Both the position numbers and the translations under genes were made by a program. From Marinobacterium marinum (GTDB lineage: Bacteria > Pseudomonadota > Gammaproteobacteria > Pseudomonadales > Balneatricaceae), in contig NZ_JACEMT010000037.1 of assembly GCF_013868415.1 (NCBI RefSeq), forward strand, positions 1-35,983: a DNA stretch of 35,983 nt, in the 5' to 3' direction. Positions 1 to 35,983 of the stretch are shown here, piece by piece (the stretch's first letter is position 1; each line of letters opens with the position of its first letter). The notes beneath the pieces are model-generated. The model had not been told where the DNA came from, made no database searches, and saw only the letters and a list, made by a program, of their open reading frames with translations.

Positions 1-821
1 GTGATCGGCGCGTGGTCCGGGTAGAAGTAGTCTCCGCCGCAGAACACCTCGTTGCGGTTGCCGGACGGATCAAAGAAGTAGATCGTCTGGCCATGGGTAA
101 TGCCGTGGCGGGTCGGCCCGATATCGATGGAGGTATCGGTCATGGAGATCAAGTCACCGGCACGCAGCACATCTTCCCAGGTTTCAAGGAAGAACGAGGC
201 ATGGTGAAACTTGCCCGGCTCAGGGTGATCGATAAAGGCGATGTCATGCGCCTTCATGCTGGTAGTCAGGAACTGTGCCACTCGCTTGCCGTCCGGCGTC
301 ATGATCTGTTCGCACAGGTCAAAGCCCAGCACCTCACGGAACAGGTCCAGGGTCTGGTCCAGCTCCGGGCCGTACAGCAGGCAGTGGTCAAACCGCTGCG
401 CCTTCATGCCCTTGAGATCACGGGGCCAGGCTTCCGGGTTGTGATTGCCGACGCCGTAACGACCGGTCTGTTCCTTGTTGGCAAAGAGTTCAAAGTAATG
501 CCCGGTCGGTGCCTGAAAGCGGATTCGGCGACCACAGCCCTTGAGTTCCTCGGCCGGGATCTCTTCAACGCCACAGCCGAACGCCAGCAACTCCCGGTTC
601 AGGCGATCAACCACCTCCTCGTTCAGGCACTTGAAGCTCATGAAATCCATGCCGGCTTCATCGGCTTCTCGCAGCACCACCGAGAACTTGTCCACTTCGG
701 TCCAGCCCTTCAGGTAGACACGGCCCTGCTCGTCGCGATCCGTTTCGATCAGCCCCATCAGCTCGACATAATGGTTAACCGCTTCTTCCAGATCCAGCAC
801 ACGAATTTGTACATGTCCGGG
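1..821. repeat. Left copy of 821-bp terminal direct repeat
   Basis: Bases 1-821 match 35163-35983 in the same orientation with a constant offset of 35,162. I compared blocks along the length and saw no mismatch. The repeat lies wholly inside xylE and both copies are cut by a window edge, as expected for end redundancy of a circular or tandem unit. No inverted ends or transposase genes accompany it. Confidence 0.95.
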
Positions 822-842
822 ACGCATTACACCTTTTTTCAT
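1..842 (-). CDS. xylE: Catechol 2,3-dioxygenase (partial, 3' end cut by left edge)
   Basis: Extradiol dioxygenase of the XylE/DmpB type, which opens catechol to 2-hydroxymuconic semialdehyde using Fe(II) in the cytoplasm. The start is ATG at 842-840, giving [12 protein letters not shown], behind a GAGG ribosome site. About 280 codons are present and the last 27 codons plus stop are missing. The protein closely follows P. putida XylE as I remember it, including the [20 protein letters not shown] region. The iron-ligand contexts RFDH, FHHASF and NRNEVF are all intact. It lies 52 bp after dctM as the last gene of the iac/TRAP operon in view. Family knowledge: XylE is 307 residues, and joining this copy to the right-edge copy gives exactly 307. 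Bases 1-821 match 35163-35983. Confidence 0.95.
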
Positions 843-894
843 CGGGTTACCTCATCGTTTTCTTATAGATTGTTTTCACGATATCGTTGCTGCC

Positions 895-2211
895 CTAGCC
901 CACGGCATTGGGCAGCATCAGAGACAGGGACGGAATCGTAATAATCAGCACCAAGCGCACGATATCCGCCAGCCAGAACGGCGTGACGCCACGAAAAATG
1001 GTGGACAGTTTCACGTCAGGCACAACCCCTCTCAACACAAACACGTTCATGCCCACCGGTGGCGTAATCAGGCTGATCTCGGTCACGACCACCACCAGAA
1101 TGCCGAACCAGATCAGGTCGAACCCCATCGCTTCGACCATCGGGTAAAACACCGGCACCGTCAGCAGTATCATGGACATGCTCTCAAGCACACAGCCCAA
1201 CAGCAGGTAAACGCCCACCAGAATCAGGATCACCGTAAAGGGACTGAAGCCGGATTCCAGAACCCAGTCTTTCAGCATCATGGGCATGCCGGTGAGGTTG
1301 ATGAAGTTGGAAAAAATCACCGCACCAATAACCAGGAAAAACAGCATGGCCGTTGTACGTGCAGCGCCCGTCAGCGAGCGCTGAAACATGGTGAAATTCA
1401 ATTTCCCGCTGAACAATGCGATCAGGAAGGCCCCCGAAGCCCCGATACCGGCGGCTTCCGTCGGCGTGAAAATCCCGGCATAAATCCCGCCCATAACGAT
1501 GATGAAGATCAGGTTGATCCCCCAGATACCCCGCATGGACAACAGGCGTTCCTTCCAGCTGGAGCGCTTGCCCGCCGGTCCGATTTCCGGTTTCAGGCGT
1601 ACGGCAAACACCACGGCCAACATGTATAGAATGACCCCGATCAGCCCCGGTAATAAACCGGCGATGAACAGCTTGCCAATATCGCTTTCCGTCATCAGGC
1701 CATAGATCACCAGAATCACGCTGGGAGGAATCAGAATCCCCAGCGTTCCTCCGGCCGCAATCGCGCCAGTCGCCAGGCTATCGGAGTATTTGTACTCCCG
1801 CATGGAGGGCATGGCGACACGAGACATGGTGGCTGCAGTTGCCATCGAGCTGCCGCACACGGCCGAAAAAGCACCGCAGGACACGACCGTCGCCAGCGCC
1901 AGGCCACCCTTGAAGTGGCCCAGAAATGCATTGGCTGCCCGGTACAGCTCCTTGGACATGCCTGATTCCGTAATCAGATTACCCATCAACAAAAACAGGG
2001 GCACGACCGATAGTCCATACGCCAGCCCCGTATCGAAGGCAGTTGACGCTATCATGTTCAAGGCCGTATCCCAGCCACGCGGGTTGCCGTAGGTCACCTG
2101 CTGCACCAGAGCAAAGCCGACCACACCCACAATACCCATCGCGACTCCCAGGGGCACACGAGCCAGAATCAGCATCATCAATGCTGCAAAACCAATCAGA
2201 CTTGCTTCCAT
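895..2211 (-). CDS. dctM: TRAP transporter large permease subunit (DctM type)
   Basis: Large integral membrane subunit of a tripartite ATP-independent periplasmic transporter, which uses ion gradients to import organic acids. It has 438 residues with many hydrophobic segments and conserved DctM features: the GGTLGILIPPS motif, the FTPTEAAG motif near the middle and a late LITPPVGMN motif. I chose the ATG at 2211, which overlaps the dctQ stop as TAATG. A longer upstream reading (to 2391) runs back through dctQ and is unlikely. It sits between iacF and xylE on the same strand, so indole-3-acetate or a related aromatic acid is the inferred substrate. The family as a whole carries many carboxylates, so the substrate is not shown by sequence. 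Confidence 0.93.
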   Translation of the reverse strand: MEASLIGFAALMMLILARVPLGVAMGIVGVVGFALVQQVTYGNPRGWDTALNMIASTAFDTGLAYGLSVVPLFLLMGNLITESGMSKELYRAANAFLGHFKGGLALATVVSCGAFSAVCGSSMATAATMSRVAMPSMREYKYSDSLATGAIAAGGTLGILIPPSVILVIYGLMTESDIGKLFIAGLLPGLIGVILYMLAVVFAVRLKPEIGPAGKRSSWKERLLSMRGIWGINLIFIIVMGGIYAGIFTPTEAAGIGASGAFLIALFSGKLNFTMFQRSLTGAARTTAMLFFLVIGAVIFSNFINLTGMPMMLKDWVLESGFSPFTVILILVGVYLLLGCVLESMSMILLTVPVFYPMVEAMGFDLIWFGILVVVVTEISLITPPVGMNVFVLRGVVPDVKLSTIFRGVTPFWLADIVRLVLIITIPSLSLMLPNAVG

Positions 2212-2732
2212 TAAGGCTCTCCTGTCGATGTTTTGCCCGGGCGGTTGGAGAACAGTTTGGCCATCAGTGCCAGGGTGGCCACCGATGTCGTCACCGCCAT
2301 CAGAAATGCCAGCCAGGCATAGGGGATCTGCAATACCGCCGTTGTATCTTCGTAACGCAGCACCTTGAAGGCGAGCCTCCACAGCACCCAAGAGAAGATG
2401 CCAAACGCCAGCACATTGATCAGCCCAACCAACCAGTACTGGATCAGACGCACCCGGTCACTGAGCGCCGCGTCGAGGATGTCCACGGCTATGTGGCCAC
2501 CCTCCGCCGTGATCAACGGCAACCCCAGAAAGATGACCGCTGCCAACATCAACTCCGTCACCTCAAAGGCACCTGTCACGGGAGTTGAAAACAGGTAGCG
2601 CCCCAGTACGTCAACCAGGGTCAGCGCCATCATCAAAAACATGACCAGGGCTGCCGTTCCACTCAGCAGGGTTTTGACCGCTCCCTCTCCACGTGACAAC
2701 CAGCCACGACTCTGTGTACGAGTTGAGCTCAT
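2211..2732 (-). CDS. dctQ: TRAP transporter small permease subunit (DctQ type)
   Basis: Small four-helix membrane subunit of the TRAP transporter, 173 residues. It shows the DctQ pattern of hydrophobic helices at about residues 22-45, 60-80, 100-120 and 140-160, with VDVLGRYLF after the first helix, typical of the family. The ATG at 2732 has a GAGGTG ribosome site. Its stop overlaps the dctM start by one base, so the two are probably translationally coupled, and dctP ends 8 bp upstream. It pairs with DctM; in family knowledge Q and M form the membrane complex that receives ligand from the P protein. Confidence 0.92.
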   Translation of the reverse strand: MSSTRTQSRGWLSRGEGAVKTLLSGTAALVMFLMMALTLVDVLGRYLFSTPVTGAFEVTELMLAAVIFLGLPLITAEGGHIAVDILDAALSDRVRLIQYWLVGLINVLAFGIFSWVLWRLAFKVLRYEDTTAVLQIPYAWLAFLMAVTTSVATLALMAKLFSNRPGKTSTGEP

Positions 2733-2740
2733 CTTTCACC

Positions 2741-3775
2741 TCAGCGCGTCTGTGTCAGACTCTGGTCCAGCTGATGGCTCTGTGCACGGAACGCCTCCAG
2801 TGCGGCGCGACCATCAACCCCCTGCTCATCCGCTACCTTCAGCCACGCCTCTTCCATCGGTGCACTGGCCTGACGAATTTCAGTCAGGAAGGCATCCGGA
2901 GCCGTCACCACTTCATTACCGTTTGCACGAATCGCTTCAAGTCCCTTGGCATCCTGGGTATCCCACATGCGTCCTGCCAGTCGTGCAAAAGCCTCGCCCG
3001 ATACCGATTCGATCGCTTTTCGATCTTCTTCCGGCAGGTCTGCAAAGCGATCACGGTTCATAACCAGATAAAAACTGAAGTTGTGGGTTCCGCCAGGGAC
3101 CAGCGTGGTGTGCGTCAGCTTGTCTTCGATATTGAAGGCTACGACGGATTCATGCGGAAACAGCGTGCCGTCGGCTACGCCACTGGAAACCAGCTCGTAA
3201 CTGCTGGAAGAGGGTTTCTGGATAGAAACCGACCCCAGTGCAGAGGCCAGGTCACTGGCAACACCGCCACCGACGCGCAATTTCAGCCCCTTCATATCTT
3301 CGGCAGACTGAACCGTTCGCTTGCTGTTATGAATATGACCCGGACCGTGTGTGAACAGACCCAGCAGTTTGACATCCTTATGTTCACCGGCCGGCTTCAG
3401 ATATTCGTTGTACACGTTCCAGTAGGCGACCGAAGTTGCTTCCGCACTATTGCCCCCAAACGGGAACTCGACCATTTTGTACAACTTGAAACGTCCCGGC
3501 GTATAACCGTGTCCGCCGTACGTAATATCGGCCTGTCCCTCACGGGCGATATCGTAATGCACCTTCGGATGGCCCAGGGACGATGGCAGGATAATGACCT
3601 TGACACGGCCGTCCGTGGCTTCTGCAACGCTGGCCGCCCAGGGTTTCATTACGTCTTGTACCAGTGGATGTCCGGACGGCAGCCAGGATGACATGGTCAG
3701 GCGGGTTTCGGCCTGCGCAGTGGAGGCCAGTAGTGCAACTGTTGCAGTCGCTGCAACGCGGAGAATCGTTTTCAT
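2741..3775 (-). CDS. dctP: TRAP transporter periplasmic solute-binding protein (DctP type)
   Basis: Extracytoplasmic ligand-binding protein of the TRAP system, 344 residues. It begins with a classic signal peptide ending AQA at about residue 22. The core contains the DctP signature KGLKLRVGG, whose arginine in known family members binds the substrate carboxylate. The ATG at 3775 follows GGGAGA. Of the three TRAP genes it is closest to iacF, separated by 87 bases that hold two small hairpins. Because the genes lie inside the iac operon, indole-3-acetate is the best guess for the ligand. Other aromatic or organic acids remain possible, since ligand cannot be read from the sequence. Confidence 0.93.
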   Translation of the reverse strand: MKTILRVAATATVALLASTAQAETRLTMSSWLPSGHPLVQDVMKPWAASVAEATDGRVKVIILPSSLGHPKVHYDIAREGQADITYGGHGYTPGRFKLYKMVEFPFGGNSAEATSVAYWNVYNEYLKPAGEHKDVKLLGLFTHGPGHIHNSKRTVQSAEDMKGLKLRVGGGVASDLASALGSVSIQKPSSSSYELVSSGVADGTLFPHESVVAFNIEDKLTHTTLVPGGTHNFSFYLVMNRDRFADLPEEDRKAIESVSGEAFARLAGRMWDTQDAKGLEAIRANGNEVVTAPDAFLTEIRQASAPMEEAWLKVADEQGVDGRAALEAFRAQSHQLDQSLTQTR

Positions 3776-3804
3776 TTTTATAGTCTCCCGATTGGGTTTT
3801 TATT

Positions 3805-3846
3805 CCGGTTCAAAACCGGTTATACGCCCTGAGCACAACCCTCAGG
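3805..3846 (-). other. Two intercistronic inverted repeats between iacF and dctP
   Basis: CCGGTT/AACCGG (3805-3819, 3-base loop) and CCTGAG/CTCAGG (3828-3846, 7-base loop) lie in the 87-base gap between iacF and dctP. Neither is followed on the minus strand by a run of T, so full termination is not supported. They could protect or process the mRNA and so set the ratio of enzyme to transporter transcripts. Confidence 0.35.
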
Positions 3847-3862
3847 ACGCCAGGTCTGCAAA

Positions 3863-4825
3863 TCAGATATCCAGAACCAGACGACTGCTCTTGGCGCGCG
3901 AGCAACAGAGCGCAATCTGGTCGTTATCCTCTTTCTCCTCCTCGGTCAGGAAGTGATCGCGATGATCCGGCGTGCCTTCGCTGACATCACAGATACAGGT
4001 GCCGCACACGCCCTCTTCGCAGGACATCTGTACTCGTACGCCAGCCGCCTTCAAGGCACTGGCAATGCTTTCCTCGGGACCCACCTGTACGGTGACATCA
4101 CTGGCCTCGGCATAGACTTCAAACGCCTCACCACTGATATCAACATCCGCGTTGAAGTACTCGAAATGAACCTGCTGATCCGGCAGTCCCGCCGCCTTGC
4201 CCTGCTCAATGACCCAATCCATGAATCCGCCCGGACCACACACGTACAGGTGAGTGCCCGGCCGTGCCGCTGCCAAGGACTTCGGGTCGATTCGTCCGCC
4301 CGCCTCCACATCATCAAAATGCAGGACCAGACGGTCGCCGAACGCCTGCCGCAACTCATCCAGAAAAGCCGCTCGGCTTTCACTGCGACAGCAATAATGC
4401 AGCTCGAAGGAGTTGTTCGCCGCCTGCAGGGCGTAGGCCATCGCGATCATCGGCGTAATACCGATCCCGCCGCCAATCAGCACACTGTGCTCAGCCTCCA
4501 TCGCCAGCGGGAAATGGTTGCGTGGCGCACTGATCTGCACCTCAGCGCCTGCTTTCAAATCGGCATGAATGCTGCGGGAACCACCTCGCGAATTCGGGTC
4601 ATTGAGAATGCCCAAACGATAGGTCGTGGCGCCGGGAGCGTTACTCAATGAATACTGGCGGATCAGGTCCGGTCCCAGCACTACATCAATGTGCGCGCCC
4701 GCTTCAAATGCGGGCAAGGAGCTGCCGTCAGCCGCTGCCAGTTCGAACACTGCGATATCGTCGGTGTGATCATCGCGCCGCTGTACTCTGGCGTTAATGA
4801 GCGTATTTTCGATACTAATCGTCAT
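3863..4825 (-). CDS. iacF: Rieske oxygenase reductase component (IacF-like)
   Basis: Flavin/iron-sulfur reductase that passes electrons from NAD(P)H to the IacCD oxygenase. The phthalate dioxygenase reductase/VanB architecture is visible: flavin motif RQYSLSN at 56-62, nucleotide-domain motif GGGIGITPM at 118-126, and a C-terminal plant-type 2Fe-2S domain with cysteines 269, 274, 277 and about 307. It has 320 residues from the ATG at 4825, which has GAGG upstream and starts 10 bp after the iacE stop. A longer reading to 4885 lies inside iacE and was rejected. The position, iacC-D-E-F in order, supports the name. A generic reductase of another Rieske system is the alternative. Confidence 0.88.
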   Translation of the reverse strand: MTISIENTLINARVQRRDDHTDDIAVFELAAADGSSLPAFEAGAHIDVVLGPDLIRQYSLSNAPGATTYRLGILNDPNSRGGSRSIHADLKAGAEVQISAPRNHFPLAMEAEHSVLIGGGIGITPMIAMAYALQAANNSFELHYCCRSESRAAFLDELRQAFGDRLVLHFDDVEAGGRIDPKSLAAARPGTHLYVCGPGGFMDWVIEQGKAAGLPDQQVHFEYFNADVDISGEAFEVYAEASDVTVQVGPEESIASALKAAGVRVQMSCEEGVCGTCICDVSEGTPDHRDHFLTEEEKEDNDQIALCCSRAKSSRLVLDI

Positions 4826-4835
4826 AATGGTTGCC

Positions 4836-5591
4836 TCAGCGCATGAACAAGCCGCCATTGATATCCCAGGTGGTACCCGTCGCAAAAGCGGCTTCCGGAC
4901 GAGCCAGCTGCACGACCATGTCTCCTACAAAATCGGCTTCGCCCAACTGTCCGACCGGAATGGCTCCCAGCAGCCCCGTCAACCGTTCTTCGGGTACCAG
5001 CGCCTTCACCATGGGCGAGTCGATCGGGCCTGGCGCAATCGCATTCACGGTCACGCCTCGTCCGGCCAGCTCCTTGGCAAACACCTTGGTCAGGGTCACA
5101 ATGCCGCCCTTGGACGCGGCATAGTGCGCACCAGTTGATGTGCCACCGTTCTGCCCCGCCAGCGAAGCCATGTTGATGATGCGGCCATAGCCCTGCTCGG
5201 CCATGTATTGCCCCACCACCTGACAGCCAGAGAAGGTGCCTCCCAGATTGATATTCACGACCTCGGCAAACTCCTGTGCACTGATATCCATGACCGGCGT
5301 CGCGCGGGTCACCGCCGCATTGTTCACCAGTACATGCAAGGCCCCCCAGTGCTCCAGCGTAGCGCGCAAAGCCGCGTCAAAGTCCTCACGACAGGCCACA
5401 TTCAAGCCCAGAGGCAGAACCTGTGTGCTTTCGGGGTCCAGTGCAGCCGCAGCCTGTTCGGCCGCCTCTCGGTTCACGTCGGTCAGCACCACCCGGTAAC
5501 CGGCCAGCAGCAAACGAGCGGCGATACTGTAACCCAGCCCCTGGGCGGCACCGGTTATCAATGCGATCTGAGGTGTTGTCAGGTTAGCCAT
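4836..5591 (-). CDS. iacE: Short-chain dehydrogenase/reductase (IacE-like)
   Basis: Classical NAD(P)-dependent short-chain dehydrogenase, 251 residues. It has the nucleotide motif TGAAQGLG at 13-20, NNA at 90-92, catalytic S143, Y157 and K161 (YxxxK spacing), and PG plus NGG-type C-terminal features. The ATG at 5591 follows a perfect AGGAGG. It lies between the oxygenase beta subunit and the reductase with gaps of about 10 bases. In iac clusters an SDR called IacE acts after the first monooxygenase step on oxidised indole-acetate intermediates. That exact role is assigned by position, because SDR sequence alone does not fix the substrate. Confidence 0.82.
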   Translation of the reverse strand: MANLTTPQIALITGAAQGLGYSIAARLLLAGYRVVLTDVNREAAEQAAAALDPESTQVLPLGLNVACREDFDAALRATLEHWGALHVLVNNAAVTRATPVMDISAQEFAEVVNINLGGTFSGCQVVGQYMAEQGYGRIINMASLAGQNGGTSTGAHYAASKGGIVTLTKVFAKELAGRGVTVNAIAPGPIDSPMVKALVPEERLTGLLGAIPVGQLGEADFVGDMVVQLARPEAAFATGTTWDINGGLFMR

Positions 5592-5602
5592 GCCACACCT
5601 CC

Positions 5603-6088
5603 TCAGAAAATGAAGCTGACAGTGCGCAAGAAGCTGTCGGCATGCATCAAACGCACGACCTTCCCGGCCAGACGGTAACCGTCACCTGTCGGCTGCAAGC
5701 GGTATTCCACATCGGCCGGGTAGGTCACCAGTTTGCCGTGGCGCATTTCATTCAGTGTCATGGCACAGCGTGCAATTACCAGGTCGTCACCCGCTTCCAA
5801 CACCCGCACCCGAGAGACCATCCGGATCGTATTGCCGGTCGAGTTGGCCGACACGGACTCGCCATTTTCCAGACGTGCCACGCGCATGCTGCGCATGTCG
5901 GCATCATCCAGGGCAAGATTCAGGGTGTCTTCGTAGTTACCATCCGCATTGAATTCGGCCGGCACGATGTACAGTCCGTCCTCATTCCACAACTGCAGCC
6001 AGTCCTGATAACCCTTGTGATCCAGCAGATCGGACTCATGCCAGATGAAAGCCGTCACATCATTAAGTATCTGCGTCTGAGTGCTCAT
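5603..6088 (-). CDS. iacD: Rieske non-heme iron oxygenase beta subunit (IacD-like)
   Basis: Small structural subunit of an aromatic-ring-hydroxylating oxygenase (SnoaL/NTF2-like fold), 161 residues. It includes the typical beta-subunit stretch WLQLWNEDGLYIVPA early on and a C-terminal RTVSFIF strand. The ATG at 6088 was chosen; it starts 2 bases after the iacC stop, with GGAGG inside the end of iacC. A longer reading to 6163 overlaps iacC and is unlikely. The beta subunit assembles with IacC as an alpha3beta3 oxygenase in this family. The tight spacing implies translational coupling of the two subunits. Confidence 0.88.
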   Translation of the reverse strand: MSTQTQILNDVTAFIWHESDLLDHKGYQDWLQLWNEDGLYIVPAEFNADGNYEDTLNLALDDADMRSMRVARLENGESVSANSTGNTIRMVSRVRVLEAGDDLVIARCAMTLNEMRHGKLVTYPADVEYRLQPTGDGYRLAGKVVRLMHADSFLRTVSFIF

Positions 6089-6090
6089 GA

Positions 6091-7380
6091 TTACTTGTCC
6101 TCCCCTGCTGCCATCACTTTCTTGTACTGACGATAGGCACCGCGCATGCCGGTTTCGGAGCACACGGCTCCAGCCACATTGCCATCCGGGGATTGATGCA
6201 GGTTGTTCATGCCGCGATTGACCAGAATCCAGCCATCCTGTCCCGCCTGCGATCCTTTGTGTACACGCTCCCAGGCCTCACCGTCATCGGGGGTGCCGAA
6301 TCCCATCGGTCCCTGGAAGTGCTCGTGCAACCGCATGCGTTTGCGGTTAAAGGGCGCCGGCGCACCTGCACCACCCAATGCCACATGCTGGATTTCAGTC
6401 TCGCCGACACTGACCGGACGCAAAACACGCAGAAAGGCCATGGAACAGGACACGTTCGGGAACAGATTGAGGTTGAAGCCCGTGCCGTGCGCCGCACGCA
6501 CCAGCTTTTGCACTTCCTCTTCGGAGCGACCTTCGGCCCGCAGCTCATCTGCCAGCTTCTGGAAACGTGGCGGAATCGGCTGATCCAGGTTGTCTTCCAG
6601 ATCCACCAATTCGGGGATCATCACCATGACACTATGGCCGTTCCCCAGGTCCTCAACAAAACCATCGCCATGCAGGAAATCGAAAATATCCGCCGTCGCA
6701 TCATCCAGTGAGGTGATAAACGACTTATGAATAATCGGGAAATGGTAGGCATCCGTGGTGTTTTCCAGCTGGATCTTCCAGTTGCCCGGGAAGTTGAAAC
6801 GATGTTCACCCAACACCTTGACCGGATAACCGCCCCCCTGCTTCATGAACAAGTCGATCCATTTCCGGGCTCCGCCCAAAAAGTCGTACAACGACTCCAA
6901 GTCTTCACGGTAGGTCGCAAAAACCAGGCCCTGATAGGTCTCAACCCGCAGGCGTTCCAGAGGCAGTTCATTCTTGTCCAGAACACCTTCATATTCTTCC
7001 GGTTTTGGCAGTGCACGCAGCGCACCATCCAAGCCGTAGCCCCAGCCATGATAGGGGCAGGTAAAACTTTTGGTCTTGCCCTTGCGTCCCTCGCACACCG
7101 TCGCACCACGATGGCGGCAGCGATTCTGCAGCACATGCAGGTTCATCTTGCGATCACGGCTCAGGATAACCGGCTGACGCCCGACCCACGCGGTCTTGTA
7201 ACACCCGGCATCAGGCACTTCACTTTCATGACCGACATATACCCAGGTGTTGTTGAATACCTTGTCCAGCTCTTCTTCAAAAATGGCCGGGTCTGAATAG
7301 AGGGCCTTATGCACTCGGCCCTCTTCAACCATTTCAGCCGCTTTCAAGCTGATGTTCTGCATCTCGATCAGTTCACTCAT
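6091..7380 (-). CDS. iacC: Rieske non-heme iron oxygenase alpha subunit (IacC-like)
   Basis: Catalytic subunit of a ring-hydroxylating dioxygenase, 429 residues. The Rieske 2Fe-2S ligands are C88, H90, C108 and H111 (CRH and CPYHGW motifs). The mononuclear iron site shows D210 followed by H213 and H218 in NTTDAYHFPIIH. Length and motifs fit the benzoate/anthranilate-type large subunits. With a flavin monooxygenase of IacA type, IacB, IacI, an SDR, a reductase and a MarR regulator next to it, the best match is IacC, which acts on an oxidised oxindole-acetate intermediate on the way to catechol. A salicylate- or anthranilate-type oxygenase is the alternative if only this gene is considered. The ribosome site before the ATG at 7380 is weak. 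Confidence 0.87.
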   Translation of the reverse strand: MSELIEMQNISLKAAEMVEEGRVHKALYSDPAIFEEELDKVFNNTWVYVGHESEVPDAGCYKTAWVGRQPVILSRDRKMNLHVLQNRCRHRGATVCEGRKGKTKSFTCPYHGWGYGLDGALRALPKPEEYEGVLDKNELPLERLRVETYQGLVFATYREDLESLYDFLGGARKWIDLFMKQGGGYPVKVLGEHRFNFPGNWKIQLENTTDAYHFPIIHKSFITSLDDATADIFDFLHGDGFVEDLGNGHSVMVMIPELVDLEDNLDQPIPPRFQKLADELRAEGRSEEEVQKLVRAAHGTGFNLNLFPNVSCSMAFLRVLRPVSVGETEIQHVALGGAGAPAPFNRKRMRLHEHFQGPMGFGTPDDGEAWERVHKGSQAGQDGWILVNRGMNNLHQSPDGNVAGAVCSETGMRGAYRQYKKVMAAGEDK

Positions 7381-7434
7381 GGTCTTGCTCTCTTTATTCT
7401 TGATCGGCCGGCATGATGATTGCCGCCGCGACGC

Positions 7435-7956
7435 TTATTCTTCTTCAGGTACCGGCAACGGCTGCGGGTTATCCCAGGGCGTGTGCACCGGTCGATTAAA
7501 GCGACTCGTGGTACAGAAATGTGCAATCTTCCACTTCCCGCCTTCCCGGCGGAAACGCACATCCAGCAACGCACTGCTCAACTGGGAGCGCCCGTCTGCA
7601 AAAGTGGCGGTCTGCAACAGCACCCAAGTGCCTGCGGCATCATTTTCACTCTCGACGTCTACCTTCTCGGAGGTCAGAAAATGCACATTGAGGGCAAAGT
7701 GAGCCGGTGGTCGGGTGTACTGCTCAAACATGGCACGCACCGCTTCCCGCCCTTCGCGACGACCAAAGGTGGCAGCATAGCGCTGGCCCCTTCCTTCCCA
7801 GATGGCGTCCGCCGTAAACAGCGCGACCAACGGTTCCAGGTCAAACCCTTCATCCAGGTAGTCACACAGCTGCATGTATTCATGCAGGCAGGCGCTCACC
7901 TCTCGTGCCGCTTCAAGCGCATTCACGCGACGACGCAACTGCTCCAGCTCACTCAT
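7435..7956 (-). CDS. iacI: SnoaL/NTF2-like protein (IacI-like)
   Basis: A 173-residue protein with the SnoaL/NTF2-like pattern: a first helix pair with YMQLCDYLDEGF, then LVALFTADAIWEGRG. It resembles oxygenase beta subunits in fold but stands apart from iacC/iacD. Described iac clusters contain a small NTF2-like gene, iacI, of uncertain catalytic role in early IAA turnover. The ATG at 7956 has GAGG upstream and starts 10 bp after the iacB stop. No metal or classic catalytic motif is visible. The name rests on fold and position, and it could simply be an accessory isomerase or dehydratase. Confidence 0.75.
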   Translation of the reverse strand: MSELEQLRRRVNALEAAREVSACLHEYMQLCDYLDEGFDLEPLVALFTADAIWEGRGQRYAATFGRREGREAVRAMFEQYTRPPAHFALNVHFLTSEKVDVESENDAAGTWVLLQTATFADGRSQLSSALLDVRFRREGGKWKIAHFCTTSRFNRPVHTPWDNPQPLPVPEEE

Positions 7957-7966
7957 ATCGGCCGCC

Positions 7967-8329
7967 TCAGCTCCGCTGTACGATCAGTTCACGACCGATA
8001 CGCGCTTCAACCTTGGCATAACGCCAGAGCTTGTAAGGCCCCTGACCGACTTCCGTGCTGCGGAACAGGTTGCAACAGGCCACCACGCGATCGTAATCGG
8101 CCACATCGGCCAGCAGGTAGGTCGTCCAGGGATATCCGGCTGAAGGACCGACCATGCTCTGGTCATCGTCCATGTTGCCAATCACTTCAACGCCGTCCAT
8201 GTCGTGGATTGCGTTCCACATTTCTCCGAATGCCGCCCAGACTTCGAGCTGCTCATCGCGCGGCGCATCCATAAAGTTCTGGTTGATGCCCATACAGAAG
8301 AGAACGCGCAAAGGTTTGTTGTCACTCAT
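7967..8329 (-). CDS. iacB: Conserved small protein of iac cluster (IacB-like)
   Basis: A 120-residue soluble protein with a dimeric alpha/beta-barrel look: beta strands at LRVLFCMGIN, GVEVIGNMD and YLLADV, alternating with helices. It has no signal peptide or membrane segment. Known iac operons carry a small gene, iacB, directly after iacA, whose product is of uncertain role but is linked to IAA conversion. Here it starts with ATG at 8329 behind AGGAGA, 25 bases from iacA. I recognise it by size and position rather than by a motif. Confidence 0.72.
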   Translation of the reverse strand: MSDNKPLRVLFCMGINQNFMDAPRDEQLEVWAAFGEMWNAIHDMDGVEVIGNMDDDQSMVGPSAGYPWTTYLLADVADYDRVVACCNLFRSTEVGQGPYKLWRYAKVEARIGRELIVQRS

Positions 8330-10022: not shown

Positions 10023-10502
10023 ATGAGTACCAGACGCAAGATCGACATGTATGACCCGCTCAGCGACAACTTCAAACGCTGTGAATTTCCGTTTTATTGG
10101 GTTGCGCAGCTCGACGCTCTCTACACTCAGGAAATGGACAGGCTGCTTAAAAGGGTTGATATGGATATTCCGCGCTGGCGTATCATCATGATCCTGAAAG
10201 AGCATTCGGAACTGAGCATTTCGGAAATAGCCGGGCACGCGGTTGCAAAGCTGCCAACCACCACCAAAATCCTGTACAGGATGCGGGATGAGGGACTGGT
10301 ATTATTGAAGACCTCCCCTGAAGACGGCCGTGTTACCCTGGTATCATTGACCGGCAAGGGGCTGGAGCGGCTGGAAGAAATTCGCGGCTCGGTAAGCCAG
10401 CTGTTCAGACGCAGCTTCAAGGGGCTAACCTCGGCTCAGATCGAACGCGCCAACACTCTACTGGCCAAAATGTACAACAACCTGACCCAGGGTGCTGACT
10501 AG
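10023..10502 (+). CDS. iacR: MarR-family transcriptional regulator (IacR-like)
   Basis: A 159-residue MarR-type winged-helix protein. The recognition region LSISEIAGHAVAKLPTTTKILYRM lies near residues 63-86 and is followed by a wing with SPEDGRVTLVSLTGKG. The N-terminus RRKIDMYDPLSDNFKRCEFPFYW resembles IacR-type regulators. Described IacR proteins repress iac genes and are relieved by indole-3-acetate. It is divergent from iacA across a 519-base region, the usual iacR layout. The ATG at 10023 has GGAGA upstream. It probably controls its own gene as well. Confidence 0.82.
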   Translation: MSTRRKIDMYDPLSDNFKRCEFPFYWVAQLDALYTQEMDRLLKRVDMDIPRWRIIMILKEHSELSISEIAGHAVAKLPTTTKILYRMRDEGLVLLKTSPEDGRVTLVSLTGKGLERLEEIRGSVSQLFRRSFKGLTSAQIERANTLLAKMYNNLTQGAD

Positions 10503-15475: not shown

Positions 15476-15624
15476 CTCAGGCACCTTCAATAGACGTTAA
15501 TGTGGCTGAATCAAAGTGCCTCTAGTATTGGCAAGCGTTGCCGGACTGGCTATTTCAATTTGACCGCAATACTATTGATTTTTGTGAACGCACAGTTCAA
15601 TCATCCCATTTTTCAGGAGCCATC
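15476..15624. promoter_or_regulatory. Divergent ligJ-lysR regulatory region
   Basis: A 149-base region between divergent ligJ and the LysR-type gene. It holds the inverted repeat GGCAA-GCG-TTGCC at 15530-15542 and a wider pair, AGTATTG (15524-15530) and CAATACT (15567-15573). TTGACC at 15560 could be a -35 for the regulator. LysR-type proteins usually act from such shared regions, repressing themselves and activating the divergent operon. Confidence 0.55.
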
Positions 15625-29115: not shown

Positions 29116-30611
<1,496 letters not shown>

Positions 30612-30640
30612 TCGAGCGCTCCTAGTCGGTCATTGCAAAT

Positions 30641-30667: not shown

Positions 30668-30717
30668 GTGTTCGCTCCATAACAATCCATAACCCTAACC
30701 GAACGAAACAGACAACA

Positions 30718-31527
30718 ATGAAAAAAACAGTTCTAGCCTCCGCTTTGGCCACCCTGCTGCCACTGACGGCCACTGCCGGCCATTACACTCCGGGCGTTGA
30801 AGCTATGCGCGCATCCATTGTTCCCGGACCCGGCGTCTACTATAAAGGCTATGCCGTTCACTATAAGGCCGATACCCACTCGGCCCTGCCGGCCAATAGC
30901 GAGGTGGAGGTCAACGCTCTGGCCAACCGCCTGATCTGGGTCACCGACACCCAGGTACTGGGTGGTGACTTGACGTTTGAAACCATTATTCCCGTCATTC
31001 ATACCGACTTGAATATTGCCGACGGTGCCGTTGCCAGCCGTGAATGGGGTATCGGTGATATCTTTTTCGGTACCGTTCTGGGCTGGCACGGACAGGGCTG
31101 GGATGCCGTTGGCGGTGTGGGCGTCTGGACCGAAACCGGCCAGGACGACGAACCTGCCGATCCGGGACTGGGTTATACCGAGACCATGCTGACTCTGGGC
31201 GGCAATGTCTACCTCAATGACAACCAGGACCTGGCGTTCAGTGCGCTGTCGCGCTACTCCATCGCCGATGACAGCCGGGATGACGAGTTTCTTATCGAAT
31301 GGGGCCTGAGCAAACAATTATCCAACGGCCTGGAACTGGGTCTGGTCGGCTACGACCGCTGGCAAGTTGAAGGAGGCGATGAACAGAAACATGCTGTTGG
31401 TGCATCCGCCGGTTATTTCTGGCCACAGAGCATGATGGGCCTGAACCTGGCAGCCTACAATGAATACGATGCCGACAGCGACTTTGAAGGCTATCAACTG
31501 CGCGCTACCTTGACCAAAGTGTTCTGA
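30718..31527 (+). CDS. Outer-membrane protein, phenol MetA-pathway family (copy 1)
   Basis: A 269-residue protein of the 'MetA-pathway of phenol degradation' family, thought to be an outer-membrane beta-barrel that helps aromatic compounds enter. It has a signal peptide ending ATA at about residue 20, then alternating strands such as VYYKGYAVHY, NRLIWVTD and ALSRYSIAD, ending in LRATLTKVF with the terminal phenylalanine typical of outer-membrane barrels. A paralogue of the same length lies at 34164-34973 on the other strand, about three quarters identical by eye. It follows the pobA terminator and so has its own promoter, which I cannot place firmly. Confidence 0.85.
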   Translation: MKKTVLASALATLLPLTATAGHYTPGVEAMRASIVPGPGVYYKGYAVHYKADTHSALPANSEVEVNALANRLIWVTDTQVLGGDLTFETIIPVIHTDLNIADGAVASREWGIGDIFFGTVLGWHGQGWDAVGGVGVWTETGQDDEPADPGLGYTETMLTLGGNVYLNDNQDLAFSALSRYSIADDSRDDEFLIEWGLSKQLSNGLELGLVGYDRWQVEGGDEQKHAVGASAGYFWPQSMMGLNLAAYNEYDADSDFEGYQLRATLTKVF

Positions 31528-31535
31528 TCCCGCCA

Positions 31536-31561
31536 GGTGCCGGTCGTCCTGCTCCGGCACC
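31536..31561 (+). terminator. Hairpin after outer-membrane protein gene
   Basis: GGTGCCGG (31536-31543), ten-base loop, CCGGCACC (31554-31561): a perfect 8-base-pair stem nine bases after the stop. A loose T/C-rich stretch follows, so it is a moderate terminator candidate. Confidence 0.55.
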
Positions 31562-31607
31562 ACCTCTTCCCGTTATTTGCTTATTCCATATTAGTCTTTG
31601 ATTAATA

Positions 31608-31621
31608 TTGATTCATATCAA
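31608..31621 (+). promoter_or_regulatory. Perfect FNR/ANR box
   Basis: TTGAT-TCAT-ATCAA is an exact match to the FNR/ANR consensus TTGAT-N4-ATCAA. It ends about 80 bases before the ATG of the YeeE/YedE-type gene, a distance that suits activation under low oxygen. Confidence 0.72.
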
Positions 31622-31702
31622 AAAAGAATTAGCATAAACGTCTTCAATCGGGACCGCCTCCTCCCGCGACTTCAGTCCTGCGTACACCCAACGGAAGACA
31701 CC

Positions 31703-32956
31703 ATGAACAAAACCGAGAACCTGAGCGGCTTTGCCCTGCTTGCCCTGATTCTGACAGCCGGCGGCCTGGCGCTTGAGCCCGATATTTTTTTCCGCCTGCT
31801 GATCGGCCTTGGGTTCGGCTATGCCCTGACACGTGCCGCACTGGGCTTTGCCGGCAGTGTAAACCGCGCCTACCGCGCCGGGTCAACCAAACTGATGCGC
31901 AGCCTGATGCTGATGTTTACTGCCACGGCCATCGCATCCACAGCCTTTCTGTATAACCAGAACCCCAAAGATCTGGATCTGTGGGTTAACCCGATCAACG
32001 CCGGACTGGTGGTCGGTGGCATTCTTTTCGGCTTCGGCATGTCTTTTGCCAGCTGCTGTGCATCCGGTGTGCTGACCTATTTTTCCAGCAACCTGACACG
32101 CCCGGCCCTTATTCTGACCTGCTTTGGTGCCGGCGTGTTTCTCGGCTTTCCCCTGCAGTCTACCCAGACCTGGATTACCGATACGCTGATTTCAACCCAA
32201 ACCTATGCCAACCAGGGGGTCTACCTGCCGGATCTGTTCCCGAACGACCCCATGCAAGGCTACTTTGGTGCCATCGTATTAACCGCGAGTCTGGCCGCTA
32301 TCGTCAGCTGGCTGGCACATCGCTATGAACAGCGTCGCCGCCGTAACGACACCTATATCGGTGTGGCTGCCGAGCAGGCTCAGGCGGAGCAGAAGCCTCA
32401 CAACCTGGGAGAACACCCCTTCTTCAGCCGCCAAACCTACGAGGCTCTGTTTGTCTCACGCTGGTCAATGACAACCGGCATCGCCGTCATCGTAATCCTG
32501 TTTACCCTGTTGATGGGCGTGACCGGTGCCGGCTGGGGTGCATCTGCACCATTCGGCTTCTGGTTTGGCCGCCTGCTGATCGCCCTGGGTGCCGATCCAG
32601 TCGCCATCGCCGAGTTTGCTCACCGCCCGGTTGAAATCTTCACCATGCCGTTCTTCAGCCACCCGGTAAACGTCCAGAACATTGGTATCATGCTGGGTTC
32701 TATCGTATCGCTGTTGCTGGCGGGCCGCTTCTTCAGCGGCATGTCAAAAATGCGCCTGAGTCTGAAAGAAGCGGTTCTGCTGATCATCGCCGGACTGGCC
32801 ATGGGCCTGGGTACTCGTTTTGCCAACGGCTGTAACGTGGGTGCCCTGTTTACCCCGATTGCCAACTTCTCTCTGTCCGGCTGGATCTTCCTGGTGTTCA
32901 TGGTGGCCGGCGGCGTGATCGGCAATGTCACCGGCAAGCGCCTGCAACAGGCTTAA
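31703..32956 (+). CDS. YeeE/YedE-family membrane transporter (sulfur-compound transport type)
   Basis: A polytopic membrane protein of 417 residues with two copies of the Sulf_transp/YeeE-YedE module: FGMSFASCCASGVLTYF in the first half and GLGTRFANGCNVGALF in the second, each with the conserved cysteine of thiosulfate-transporting relatives. The two halves are joined by a charged linker near residues 215-235. The ATG at 31703 has GGAAG upstream; an earlier reading from 31598 was rejected since it crosses the FNR box. Thiosulfate or another sulfur (or selenium) compound is the expected cargo. Its link to aromatic degradation is not obvious. Confidence 0.83.
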   Translation: MNKTENLSGFALLALILTAGGLALEPDIFFRLLIGLGFGYALTRAALGFAGSVNRAYRAGSTKLMRSLMLMFTATAIASTAFLYNQNPKDLDLWVNPINAGLVVGGILFGFGMSFASCCASGVLTYFSSNLTRPALILTCFGAGVFLGFPLQSTQTWITDTLISTQTYANQGVYLPDLFPNDPMQGYFGAIVLTASLAAIVSWLAHRYEQRRRRNDTYIGVAAEQAQAEQKPHNLGEHPFFSRQTYEALFVSRWSMTTGIAVIVILFTLLMGVTGAGWGASAPFGFWFGRLLIALGADPVAIAEFAHRPVEIFTMPFFSHPVNVQNIGIMLGSIVSLLLAGRFFSGMSKMRLSLKEAVLLIIAGLAMGLGTRFANGCNVGALFTPIANFSLSGWIFLVFMVAGGVIGNVTGKRLQQA

Positions 32957-32978
32957 TCGCCGATTGAGAAAACAGCGC

Positions 32979-33007
32979 TTGAAAAACGGGCGCCGCACCC
33001 ACATGAT
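32979..33007 (+). promoter_or_regulatory. Candidate promoter of the Old Yellow Enzyme gene
   Basis: TTGAAA (32979-32984), 17 bases, CATGAT (33002-33007). The -35 matches five of six and the -10 four of six. The -10 lies inside the left arm of the 36-base palindrome, a classic layout for repression by operator binding. Confidence 0.5.
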
Positions 33008-33034
33008 CTGTAATACCTATTACAGATCATGTGG
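32999..33034. promoter_or_regulatory. 36-base near-perfect palindrome, operator of the OYE gene
   Basis: Arms CCACATGATCTGTAATA (32999-33015) and TATTACAGATCATGTGG (33018-33034) are fully complementary around two central bases. It covers the candidate -10 and touches the ribosome site (GGAG at 33033-33036). The size suits a TetR-type repressor such as NemR-like proteins. In the mRNA it could also fold and hide the ribosome site. Confidence 0.85.
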
Positions 33035-33042
33035 AGTGACCG

Positions 33043-34107
33043 ATGCCAACCCTGTTTGATCCCTTGCAGGCTGGTGCCCTGCAGTTGCGCAACCGTATCG
33101 TCATGGCCCCTTTGACCCGCTGCCGCGCGGAGAACGATCGTATTCCCGGTGAGCTGATGGTGGAATATTATCGCCAGCGCGCCAACGCGGGCCTGATCAT
33201 CTCTGAAGCGACGGCTATTACGCCTCAGGCCGTTGGCTACCCGGATACACCAGGTATCTGGTCAGACGCACAGATCAATGGCTGGAAGAAAGTCACCGAG
33301 GCCGTCCATGCCGAAGGCGGCCTGATCGTCCTCCAGCTCTGGCATGTCGGACGCATCTCTCACCCCGACTATCTCAACGGCGAACAACCGGTTGCGCCCA
33401 GCGCCATCCGCCCCGCAGGGCATGTCAGTCTGATTCGCCCCAAAACAGACTATGTGACTCCCCGCGCGCTGGAAACCGACGAGATACCAGGCATTGTCGA
33501 AGCCTACCGCAAGGGCGCCGAAAACGCCCAGCGGGCCGGGTTTGACGGTGTCGAAATCCACGGTGCCAACGGTTATCTTCTGGAGCAGTTTCTGCTTGAC
33601 GGCACCAACACCCGCACCGACCAATATGGCGGCTCGCTGGAAAACCGTGCACGATTGATGCTGGAGGTGACCGACGCCGTGTGCTCGGTCTGGGGCCCCG
33701 AACGCGTTGGCATGCACCTGTCCCCCCGCGCCGACTCACACGATGTCAGCGTCACCAACCGTGAAGAGACCTATGGTTATATCGCGGAACAGCTTGGCAA
33801 GCGTAAGCTGGCCTTTATCTGCACCCGTGAGCATGTCGCCGACGACAGTATCAGTCCCCTGCTGAAAGCACGCTTTGGCGGCGTCCATATCGCCAATGAA
33901 AACTTCACGTCCACGTCCGCCCAAGCCTGCGTGGCCGATGGCAAAGCGGAGGCCGTCGCCTTTGGCAAGCCTTACATCGCCACCCCTGATCTGGCGACTC
34001 GCATTGCCAAGGGAGCGGACTGGAACGAGCAGGATACCCGTACCTTTTACAGAGGCGGCGCCAGCGGCTACATTGACTATCCGATGCTGGACCAGAAAAC
34101 TCCATAA
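33043..34107 (+). CDS. nemA: Old Yellow Enzyme-family NADH:flavin reductase (NemA-like)
   Basis: FMN-dependent ene-reductase of 354 residues that reduces electrophilic C=C bonds, quinones and nitro compounds. The catalytic H173 and N176 in EIHGANGYL are of the class I HxxN type, and the family DQYGGSLENR stretch follows. The N-terminus RNRIVMAPLTRCRA is typical. The ATG at 33043 has GGAG upstream. It may detoxify quinone-type electrophiles formed during phenol oxidation, though that is inference. No repressor gene is next to it, unlike E. coli nemR-nemA, yet a strong operator-like palindrome covers its start. Confidence 0.9.
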   Translation: MPTLFDPLQAGALQLRNRIVMAPLTRCRAENDRIPGELMVEYYRQRANAGLIISEATAITPQAVGYPDTPGIWSDAQINGWKKVTEAVHAEGGLIVLQLWHVGRISHPDYLNGEQPVAPSAIRPAGHVSLIRPKTDYVTPRALETDEIPGIVEAYRKGAENAQRAGFDGVEIHGANGYLLEQFLLDGTNTRTDQYGGSLENRARLMLEVTDAVCSVWGPERVGMHLSPRADSHDVSVTNREETYGYIAEQLGKRKLAFICTREHVADDSISPLLKARFGGVHIANENFTSTSAQACVADGKAEAVAFGKPYIATPDLATRIAKGADWNEQDTRTFYRGGASGYIDYPMLDQKTP

Positions 34108-34114
34108 GCAGGCA

Positions 34115-34158
34115 GGCGACAGGCGGCAGCTCTCGGAGCCTATCTGCCGACTGTCGCC
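34115..34158. terminator. Inverted repeat between convergent genes
   Basis: GGCGACAGGCGGCAG (34115-34129) and CTGCCGACTGTCGCC (34144-34158) pair at 14 of 15 positions. It lies between the convergent OYE and outer-membrane protein genes and so could end both transcripts, though T-runs are lacking on either side. Confidence 0.5.
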
Positions 34159-34163
34159 ACTTG

Positions 34164-34973
34164 TCAGAAAACCTTGGTCAGCGTCGCCCTGAAGGTAGTC
34201 CCTTCAAAATCACCACGAGCATGGTACTCGTCATACACCGCCACGTTCAGGCCGGTCATGATTTGCGGCCAGAAATAGCCGACCTCGGCACCTATGCCAT
34301 GTCGTTGCTGATCACCGCCTTCCACCTGCCAATGGTCGTAACCCACCAGCCCCATTTCCAATCCGCTGGCCAGTTGTTTACTGAGGCTCCATTCAACGAC
34401 CAGCTCATCTTCGATTCGACTGGTATCGGCAATGGAGTAACGGCTGAGCGCACTGAAAGACAGGTCCCTGGTGTCATTCAGGTAAACATTGCCGCCCAAA
34501 GTCAGCATGGTTTCGCTGTACCCCAGGCCAGGATCTGCCGGTTCATCATCCTGACCGGTTTCAGTCCATACTCCGATGCCGCCCACGGCATCCCAGCGCT
34601 CACCATGCCAGCCGAGCACGGTGCCCAGGAAAATATCGCCAATCCCCCACTCATCACTGCTGACGGCACCGCCCGCGATACTCAGGTCCGTATGAATCAC
34701 GGGGATGATGGTTTCAAACGCCAGATTCGCGCCCAACACTTCCCGGTCGGTTACCCAAATCAGTCGGTTGGCCAGAGCACTGACCTTCACCTCACTGTCG
34801 GCCGGTAACGCAGCATTCTGATCCGCCGTGTAATGCAGCGCATACCCCTTGTAGTACACACCAGGCCCCGGCATGACGGAAGCACGCATGCCTTCTACGC
34901 CCAGTGGATAGTGTCCGGCCATGGCCGTCAGTGGAAAAAGCGACACCAGGGCCGATGTTATTATTTTTTTCAT
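34164..34973 (-). CDS. Outer-membrane protein, phenol MetA-pathway family (copy 2)
   Basis: A 269-residue paralogue of the protein at 30718-31527, same length and about three quarters identical by eye, with long identical stretches such as WTETGQDDEPADPGLGY. The signal peptide ends AMA near residue 19 and the C-terminus is again LRATLTKVF-like (FRATLTKVF). It is on the minus strand, 107 bases downstream of the right-edge xylE, so it probably belongs to the transcript that contains xylE. It may serve uptake of the IAA-side substrates while copy 1 serves the p-cresol side, but that split is inference. The ribosome site is weak. Confidence 0.85.
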   Translation of the reverse strand: MKKIITSALVSLFPLTAMAGHYPLGVEGMRASVMPGPGVYYKGYALHYTADQNAALPADSEVKVSALANRLIWVTDREVLGANLAFETIIPVIHTDLSIAGGAVSSDEWGIGDIFLGTVLGWHGERWDAVGGIGVWTETGQDDEPADPGLGYSETMLTLGGNVYLNDTRDLSFSALSRYSIADTSRIEDELVVEWSLSKQLASGLEMGLVGYDHWQVEGGDQQRHGIGAEVGYFWPQIMTGLNVAVYDEYHARGDFEGTTFRATLTKVF

Positions 34974-35015
34974 CTTGGCTACTCTTGGTTGGTACAGTGG
35001 TAAACAGCGGGCCCC

Positions 35016-35044
35016 GCCCTCTGCCTGTCAGCAAGGCAGAGGGC
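35016..35044 (-). other. Strong hairpin between xylE and outer-membrane protein gene
   Basis: GCCCTCTGCC (35016-35025), nine-base loop, GGCAGAGGGC (35035-35044): a perfect 10-base-pair stem in the 107-base gap after xylE. On the minus strand only a short weak T-stretch follows, so it may attenuate rather than stop transcription into the outer-membrane protein gene. Confidence 0.55.
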
Positions 35045-35080
35045 TATGCAAAGCCCGCGGGCGTGTTAACAGGATATTGC

Positions 35081-35983
35081 TCAGGTCAGAGCGGTCAGGA
35101 AGCGCTCGTTGAGCTGACGATCATGGTAGAAGATCGCCTTGCCCAGCTTGTCAGCATCCCAGGTGATCGGCGCGTGGTCCGGGTAGAAGTAGTCTCCGCC
35201 GCAGAACACCTCGTTGCGGTTGCCGGACGGATCAAAGAAGTAGATCGTCTGGCCATGGGTAATGCCGTGGCGGGTCGGCCCGATATCGATGGAGGTATCG
35301 GTCATGGAGATCAAGTCACCGGCACGCAGCACATCTTCCCAGGTTTCAAGGAAGAACGAGGCATGGTGAAACTTGCCCGGCTCAGGGTGATCGATAAAGG
35401 CGATGTCATGCGCCTTCATGCTGGTAGTCAGGAACTGTGCCACTCGCTTGCCGTCCGGCGTCATGATCTGTTCGCACAGGTCAAAGCCCAGCACCTCACG
35501 GAACAGGTCCAGGGTCTGGTCCAGCTCCGGGCCGTACAGCAGGCAGTGGTCAAACCGCTGCGCCTTCATGCCCTTGAGATCACGGGGCCAGGCTTCCGGG
35601 TTGTGATTGCCGACGCCGTAACGACCGGTCTGTTCCTTGTTGGCAAAGAGTTCAAAGTAATGCCCGGTCGGTGCCTGAAAGCGGATTCGGCGACCACAGC
35701 CCTTGAGTTCCTCGGCCGGGATCTCTTCAACGCCACAGCCGAACGCCAGCAACTCCCGGTTCAGGCGATCAACCACCTCCTCGTTCAGGCACTTGAAGCT
35801 CATGAAATCCATGCCGGCTTCATCGGCTTCTCGCAGCACCACCGAGAACTTGTCCACTTCGGTCCAGCCCTTCAGGTAGACACGGCCCTGCTCGTCGCGA
35901 TCCGTTTCGATCAGCCCCATCAGCTCGACATAATGGTTAACCGCTTCTTCCAGATCCAGCACACGAATTTGTACATGTCCGGG
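35081..35983 (-). CDS. xylE: Catechol 2,3-dioxygenase (partial, first 7 codons beyond right edge)
   Basis: Same gene as at the left edge, here with its 3' end. The frame enters the window at codon 8 (PGHVQ) and runs 300 codons to a TGA at 35081, ending [10 protein letters not shown] as in known XylE proteins. The iron-ligand regions RFDH, FHHASF and NRNEVF are present. Adding the seven codons visible in the left copy (MKKGVMR) gives 307 residues, the usual length. The 3' part at 35081-35162 is not in the left copy. It is followed on the same strand by the outer-membrane protein gene. Confidence 0.95.
35163..35983. repeat. Right copy of 821-bp terminal direct repeat
   Basis: Identical, as far as I could compare, to bases 1-821 and in the same direction. 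Collapsing the two copies gives a unit of 35,162 bp with a single complete xylE across the join. Confidence 0.95.

What the first reader, a model, noticed from the sequence alone, without database searches (positions are those of the whole stretch)
1..35983. Terminal redundancy: the window closes into a 35,162-bp circle or tandem unit through xylE
Bases 1-821 recur at 35163-35983, same orientation, no mismatch seen. The join restores an intact 307-codon xylE with its ribosome site and makes one continuous operon from iacA to an outer-membrane protein gene. There is no replication, partition, relaxase, integrase or transposase gene. A self-replicating plasmid is thus unlikely. More likely are a tandem amplification of a catabolic block, an excised circle carried by a larger replicon, or a cycle made by the assembler. 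Two xylE copies in direct repeat would also allow loss or amplification of 35 kb by ordinary recombination.
Basis: partly seen in the sequence, partly recalled or inferred. Interest (0 to 1): 0.8.

Follow-up and report, generated by a model that had tools for sequence, protein, structure and literature searches.

The report
Assembly break at twin xylE genes
The 35-kb "circle" is most likely a normal stretch of bacterial chromosome that the assembler cut at two almost identical copies of one aromatic-degradation gene, one copy probably having overwritten the other.

Summary
The repeat is real: bases 1-821 equal 35163-35983 exactly. The circle is not supported. The window is a whole contig (C24) of a 55-contig draft; the same 821 bases end contig C20 and begin contig C23. 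Shared contig ends are this assembly's habit: 47 of 62 ends share an exact repeat of 90 bp or more, and two other contigs self-close, one through tuf. Relatives keep both chromosomal joins: flavin reductase-xylE-TRAP in 7 of 7 genomes with that locus, and C24's right-end gene beside the phenol-operon xylE in 6 of 6 genus genomes with that locus. So the order is C20-xylE1-C24-xylE2-C23. In this strain the two genes differ at 4 of 924 bases, all silent; the same two loci in six genus relatives are 76-80% identical. Identity stops at start and stop codon. Grouping the phenol-locus copy, alone or with its twin, with phenol-locus genes of relatives is rejected. Best reading: inter-locus gene conversion, as in tuf. 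A second pair is 97.5-97.8% identical in two relatives, one closed. No reads were available, so a minor excised or amplified form is not excluded.

The parts
1..842 (-). 5' part (842 bases) of xylE1 (catechol 2,3-dioxygenase, A locus); start codon ends at 842; the last 82 bases of the gene lie in contig C20
   Evidence: Pfam Glyoxalase and Diox-like_N
1..821 (.). maximal exact repeat R; also 35163-35983, right end of C20, left end of C23; the base next to it differs on both sides
35081..35983 (-). 3' part (903 bases) of xylE2 (P locus); the first 21 bases of the gene lie in contig C23
895..2391 (-). TRAP transporter large permease, directly upstream of xylE1 (A-locus anchor)
2741..3775 (-). 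TRAP solute-binding protein DctP
3863..7380 (-). ring-hydroxylating dioxygenase set (reductase, SDR, beta and alpha subunits), order conserved in G001, G002, G004, G005
7435..8329 (-). SnoaL-like protein and a small conserved protein without family match, same strand
10023..10502 (+). MarR regulator, end of the block conserved with relatives
31598..32956 (+). YedE/TsuA-like membrane protein, anchor of the P locus: within 3.6 kb of the start of the P-locus xylE in 6 of 6 genus relatives that have that locus
33043..34107 (+). N-ethylmaleimide-reductase-like flavoenzyme, second P-locus anchor (near the P xylE in 5 of those 6; in G006 and G007 on the far side of the first anchor)
34164..34973 (-). 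Phenol_MetA_deg outer-membrane protein, next gene after xylE2

Best explanation
The window is an ordinary chromosomal contig lying between two paralogous xylE genes in direct repeat, in the order C20-xylE1-C24-xylE2-C23. The two older loci (A: dioxygenase/TRAP operon; P: phenol hydroxylase operon) each have their own catechol 2,3-dioxygenase gene. In this strain the A copy has overwritten the P copy by gene conversion over the coding sequence. That left an exact 821-bp repeat that the assembly did not resolve, so it was cut there and the repeat was written on all four contig ends; the terminal redundancy is a by-product. Shown: the repeat, the four shared ends, the conserved joins in relatives, near-identity confined to the coding sequence, and the tree placement. 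Inferred: the recombination step, its direction, and the linear order in this strain, since no reads were available.
For: Same 821 bp at C20 right end, C23 left end and both C24 ends. 47 of 62 contig ends (31 contigs; 24 N-only contigs left out; two of the 62 ends partly N) share an exact terminal repeat of at least 90 bp with another end; three of the 31 contigs self-close: C24, C26 (through tuf) and C35 (through a TRAP permease). A-locus join kept in 7 of 7 relatives with the locus; P-locus ferredoxin upstream in 6 genus relatives and the C24 right-end gene downstream in the same 6. In closed G001 the A and P genes lie 20.1 kb apart in the order and orientation predicted here, in G004 20.3 kb. 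X1 and X2 differ at 4 of 924 sites, all silent; A versus P within the six genus relatives is 75.6-79.9%. X2 is 74.6-80.0% identical to six P-locus genes and 80.2-84.3% to the six A-locus genes of the same genomes. The 20 bases before the X2 start codon look like the P type (by eye). AU tests reject X2 with four P genes (p 2.8e-07) and X1 plus X2 with those four (p 2.5e-05).
Against: No reads or depth, so the linear join in this strain is inferred from relatives. The distance and order of the two loci are not fixed in the genus: in G002 and G005 the P gene comes before the A gene on the contig, in closed G007 they are about 2 Mb apart, in G006 on different contigs; only the two joins themselves are constant. 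Which variants flanking R belong to which copy is assigned by synteny. X2 keeps no P-type relic that would mark a tract edge. A clade of X1, X2 and four A genes alone is neither found nor rejected (p 0.187), because S- and T-locus genes mix with them. The groups for the AU tests were named after an earlier tree had been seen.
Confidence: 0.9

Rival explanations
1. A free or excised 35,162-bp circle, with C20 joined to C23 in the chromosome, formed by recombination between the two xylE copies.
For: The contig closes on itself with an intact gene, and direct repeats of this length can recombine.
Against: Relatives hold both sides at conserved joins; no replication or recombinase family among 37 ORFs scanned; contigs self-closing through tuf and a TRAP permease show the same signature.
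Confidence: 0.03
2. Tandem amplification of the 35-kb block in the chromosome, C20-R-(C24-R)n-C23 with n above 1.
For: Compatible with the contig graph for any n; direct repeats favour it in principle.
Against: Nothing points to n above 1, but nothing here could show it: no depth data. A left-edge probe (700-1400) has one full-length exact match in the assembly, which a collapsed repeat would give too. Closed G001 has one A and one P locus.
Confidence: 0.05
3. Recent duplication: the P locus had lost or never had its own xylE and received a copy of xylE1 by insertion rather than by conversion.
For: X1 and X2 are nearly identical.
Against: All six genus relatives with the P locus have an xylE at that place; the X2 leader looks P-type; similarity ends at start and stop codon, as expected if homology sets the limit.
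Confidence: 0.07
4. The near-identity is an assembly error that collapsed two diverged genes.
For: The break lies in the gene.
Against: Copies about 76-80% identical should not collapse; the contigs carry separate variants on either side of R, with the exact repeat ending at a mismatch on both sides; the third copy in this strain, 79.9% identical, lies inside a contig without a break.
Confidence: 0.02

Closest known systems
tufA/tufB gene conversion in Proteobacteria (PMC5485169: abstract and section list seen; PMC6053082: passages seen)
   Same: [quoted passage not shown] in this very assembly a contig self-closes through a tuf-like repeat in the same way.
   Different: tuf is a translation gene; xylE is a catabolic gene present here in three or four operon-linked copies, and 37 of 40 within-genome pairs examined are diverged (70.8-86.3%).
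Duplicated meta-pathway operons with two xylE genes on TOL plasmids such as pWW53 (recalled; no paper on it was seen, one search gave a listing only)
   Same: Two xylE genes in one replicon that can recombine (recalled).
   Different: Here the flanking DNA is unrelated outside the xylE coding sequence, the contig links to long contigs on both sides, and both loci are shared with other species of the genus.
Contig ends sharing repeats in draft assemblies
   Same: Exact maximal repeat written on every adjoining contig end.
   Different: Nothing apart from the gene involved.

Membership tests
Circular replicon or excised circle | both ends overlap only with each other | tested here: not met
   the 821 bp also end C20 and begin C23
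Circular replicon or excised circle | replication, partition, relaxase or recombinase gene | tested here: not met
   none listed for 37 window ORFs scanned; a circle made by host recombination would need none
Circular replicon or excised circle | reads crossing the circular join | not testable with these tools
   no reads held
Tandem amplification | raised read depth over the block | not testable with these tools
   no depth data for this genome
Inter-locus gene conversion pair (tuf-like) | paralogs within the genome more alike than orthologs at the same locus | tested here: met
   99.6% between copies versus 74.6-80.0% from X2 to six P-locus genes; locus grouping rejected
Inter-locus gene conversion pair (tuf-like) | synteny shows both loci are older than the homogenisation | tested here: met
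   P locus in 6 genus relatives, A locus in 7 relatives
Inter-locus gene conversion pair (tuf-like) | similarity confined to the homologous gene, flanks keep their locus identity | tested here: met
   flank windows drop to 2-9 of 20 matches just outside the coding sequence; leaders resemble their locus type by eye
Inter-locus gene conversion pair (tuf-like) | tract edges visible inside the gene | tested here: not met
   no P-type relic in X2 at the four differing sites or in 66-bp windows; the tract may cover the whole gene, so this feature is not strictly required
Catechol 2,3-dioxygenase (XylE) | about 307-aa extradiol dioxygenase next to catechol-producing genes | tested here: met
   length; Pfam domains; ferredoxin and phenol hydroxylase genes upstream of xylE2; activity not tested

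The most novel reading that the evidence does not exclude
Operon-linked xylE genes in Marinobacterium evolve in concert by episodes: coding sequences are swapped between catechol-producing operons (A over P here; A with T in G006 and G007; T drawn into the A group in G004), while each keeps its own flanks, although 37 of 40 within-genome pairs are only 70.8-86.3% identical.
Probability: 0.55. Interest if true: 0.4.

Novelty: new member of a known kind. Interest (0 to 1): 0.25.

Why it matters
It takes a supposed circle or amplicon off the list and gives a clear warning: exact terminal redundancy in a draft contig can mean paralogs in direct repeat, with tuf as the control in the same assembly. 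What remains of interest is a small natural system for gene conversion among diverged metabolic paralogs. It also means that xylE trees here follow neither locus nor species throughout.

Tried and rejected
Circle and amplification were tested through the assembly's other contig ends and relatives' gene order, and set aside. A plasmid search with window 1-8000 found no record in which one place covers 80% of the query; the best covers 32% at 66.6% identity (Martelella plasmid with a similar dioxygenase/TRAP operon).

Run-length test for conversion tracts: of 40 within-genome pairs, only the seven with runs of 30 bp or more were printed. Four were unlikely by shuffling: G000 (821 bp, p 0.0), G007 (357, p 0.001), G006 (283, p 0.005) and one G004 pair (41, p 0.01); three were not (p 0.10, 0.19, 0.22); the other 33 are not known. 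The p values are not corrected for 40 pairs.

On checking, two AU tests were badly framed: one held X1 with A genes but left its twin X2 outside, and one held four T genes without the T genes of G006, G007 and G011. One search repeats them properly; both stay rejected (p 4.5e-07 and 5.6e-07). Also one search printed the antisense frames of the four joins, not xylE itself; one search gives the xylE frames.

Rows left out: of the xylE-like matches I fetched and classed the context of 30 loci in nine relatives (G001, G002, G004, G005, G006, G007, G011, G013, G014); matches in G016, G018, G021, G022 and G027, and partial ones in G006 and G007, were not examined. G003 has no xylE match. G013 C2 has a mixed context (TRAP permease, ferredoxin, xylE, no flavin reductase) and is counted as neither A nor P. 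G011_105, G013_C23 and G014 also have a ferredoxin-linked xylE but are outside the genus and outside the count of six; G011 has no match to the P-side anchor. G006_C23 (306 codons) matched no locus class and was left out of the identity tables.

Literature: searches were listings only (8 to 20 titles each, ranked, of up to 876 papers); none of the titles shown is about gene conversion among xylE paralogs. The library is open-licence only. In PMC6053082 the words dioxygenase and catechol occur 0 times in the main text.
Full report
Observation. The first and last 821 bases are identical, and no longer prefix/suffix match exists up to 5 kb. It is the only direct-repeat family of 60 bp or more found with 14-base seeds. 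The repeat is most of a 924-bp catechol 2,3-dioxygenase gene, xylE, on the minus strand.

Where the window lies. It is the whole of contig C24 in a 3.28-Mb, 55-contig genome. The same 821 bases form the right end of C20 (201245 bp) and the left end of C23 (92639 bp). The base next to the repeat differs between C20 and C24 on one side and between C24 and C23 on the other, so the repeat is exactly the maximal match, as expected for a repeat in an assembly graph. All four possible joins give an intact 307-codon xylE.

Control inside the assembly. I hold both ends (up to 3 kb) of all 55 contigs (and the window). 24 contigs read N and were left out. Of the 62 remaining ends (two of them partly N), 47 share an exact terminal repeat of at least 90 bp with another end, in 12 groups. 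Three of the 31 contigs self-close: C24 by 821 bp, C26 (17.7 kb) by 1163 bp, and C35 (4.8 kb) by 1691 bp. The translated repeat of C26 reads as elongation factor Tu and that of C35 as a TRAP permease; both names are by my own reading of the translations, not by a family search. So terminal redundancy here is a mark of repeats at contig ends, and a self-closing contig can simply lie between two direct-repeat paralogs.

Order in relatives. Named records nearest to this xylE are mostly Marinobacterium; by equal contig lengths G001 is M. sediminicola (closed), G002 M. alkalitolerans, G004 M. stanieri, G005 M. halophilum and G006 M. iners. G007 is closed and was not matched to a name. I classed 30 xylE loci of nine relatives by their neighbours. 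The A locus, TRAP permease-xylE-flavin reductase, which corresponds to the join C20-C24, is complete in 7 of 7 relatives with a TRAP permease directly upstream of xylE: G001, G002, G004, G005, G006, G007, G011; G013 C2 is mixed and not counted. The P locus, ferredoxin-xylE of the phenol hydroxylase operon (C23 side; Pfam), is present in 6 of the 7 genus relatives searched: G001, G002, G004, G005, G006, G007; G003 has no xylE. In all 6 the homolog of C24's right-end gene 31598-32956 lies downstream of that xylE, within 3.6 kb of its start, and the second anchor 33043-34107 lies there in 5 of 6, G004 being the exception. So both joins are older than this strain. In closed G001 the A and P genes are 20.1 kb apart in the order and orientation predicted for C20-C24-C23, and in G004 20.3 kb. 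Against a fixed arrangement: in G002 and G005 the P gene comes before the A gene, in G007 they lie about 2 Mb apart, in G006 on different contigs. Between the conserved anchors at 10502 and 31598, G000 has about 21 kb where G001 has about 7 kb; its genes include protocatechuate-4,5-cleavage types and 4-hydroxybenzoate 3-monooxygenase.

Gene conversion. Two chromosomal xylE genes follow from this order: X1 (C20-C24) and X2 (C24-C23). They differ at 4 of 924 sites (21, 843, 849, 852), all silent. A- and P-locus genes within the six genus relatives are 75.6-79.9% identical. Outside the coding sequence the match between the two G000 copies falls to 2-9 of 20 bases. The 20 bases before each start codon resemble their own locus, by eye: X1 like other A leaders, X2 closer to other P leaders. 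X2 is 74.6-80.0% identical to the six P-locus genes and 80.2-84.3% to the A-locus genes of the same six genomes. In a tree of 33 genes, X2 pairs with X1 in a group of 14 that holds four A genes (G001, G002, G004, G005), six S genes and two T-locus genes (G004_311, G011_90); the A genes of G006, G007 and G011 are outside it. Holding X2 with four P genes of relatives costs 208.7 log-likelihood units, p 2.8e-07; holding X1 and X2 together with them costs 115.3, p 2.5e-05. So both copies are not P-like, and the likely direction is A over P. A clade of X1, X2 and four A genes alone is not found and not rejected (p 0.187). No P-type relic remains in X2, so the tract probably covers the whole gene.

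Recurrence. In G006 and G007 the A gene and the gene at a third locus (T, recognised by three conserved divergent genes upstream; the downstream side is not conserved in these two) are 97.5% and 97.8% identical. In closed G007 they lie about 24 kb apart in the same orientation. Holding the G006 and G007 A genes with X1, X2 and four other A genes is rejected (p 4.5e-07); holding the two T genes of G006 and G007 together apart from the A genes is only weakly rejected (p 0.026). A clade of all seven T-locus genes plus the two homogenised A genes is rejected (p 5.6e-07); without G004 and G011 it is borderline (p 0.046), so the T gene of G004, and perhaps of G011, departs from its locus. Of 40 within-genome pairs, 3 are 97.5-99.6% identical and 37 are 70.8-86.3%, so homogenisation is episodic at most. 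These groups were named after a first tree had been seen, which the AU test does not allow for.

How it most likely works. Each operon keeps its own ring-cleavage gene. Homologous recombination between two copies in one chromosome replaces one coding sequence by the other, stopping where homology stops; [quoted passage not shown] This is inferred here. The four differences are silent, so the two enzymes have the same sequence; what each does in the cell is untested.

Limits. No reads, no depth and no second strain were available. A minor population with the block excised or amplified is possible and would not show in these data.

Noticed in passing
window 30724-31277 and 34417-34970: Two Phenol_MetA_deg outer-membrane protein genes form an inverted repeat, 554 nt at 74%; the proteins share 202 of 268 aligned positions.
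   Followed up: partly
window 15538-16845 (+): A LysR-type regulator (PcaQ-like) whose open frame holds two LysR-type helix-turn-helix domains (one at residues 37-96, a second in the full regulator from about residue 137). Whether the upstream start is used was not tested.
   Followed up: partly
window 22908-24680 and L007 6468-8180 (C23): Two MobR-like sigma-54 regulators near the phenol operon: the window's copy matches MobR (below the curated cut-off) and is 42-43% identical to the relatives' counterpart of the C23 gene.
   Followed up: no
window about 10600-31500: About 21 kb of further aromatic catabolism genes lie between the A and P loci; no counterpart was found at that place in the G001 and G004 stretches compared.
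   Followed up: no
G000 contig C26 (17,703 bp): Self-closes through an exact 1163-bp tuf-like repeat shared with C19 and C25, the same signature as the window.
   Followed up: partly
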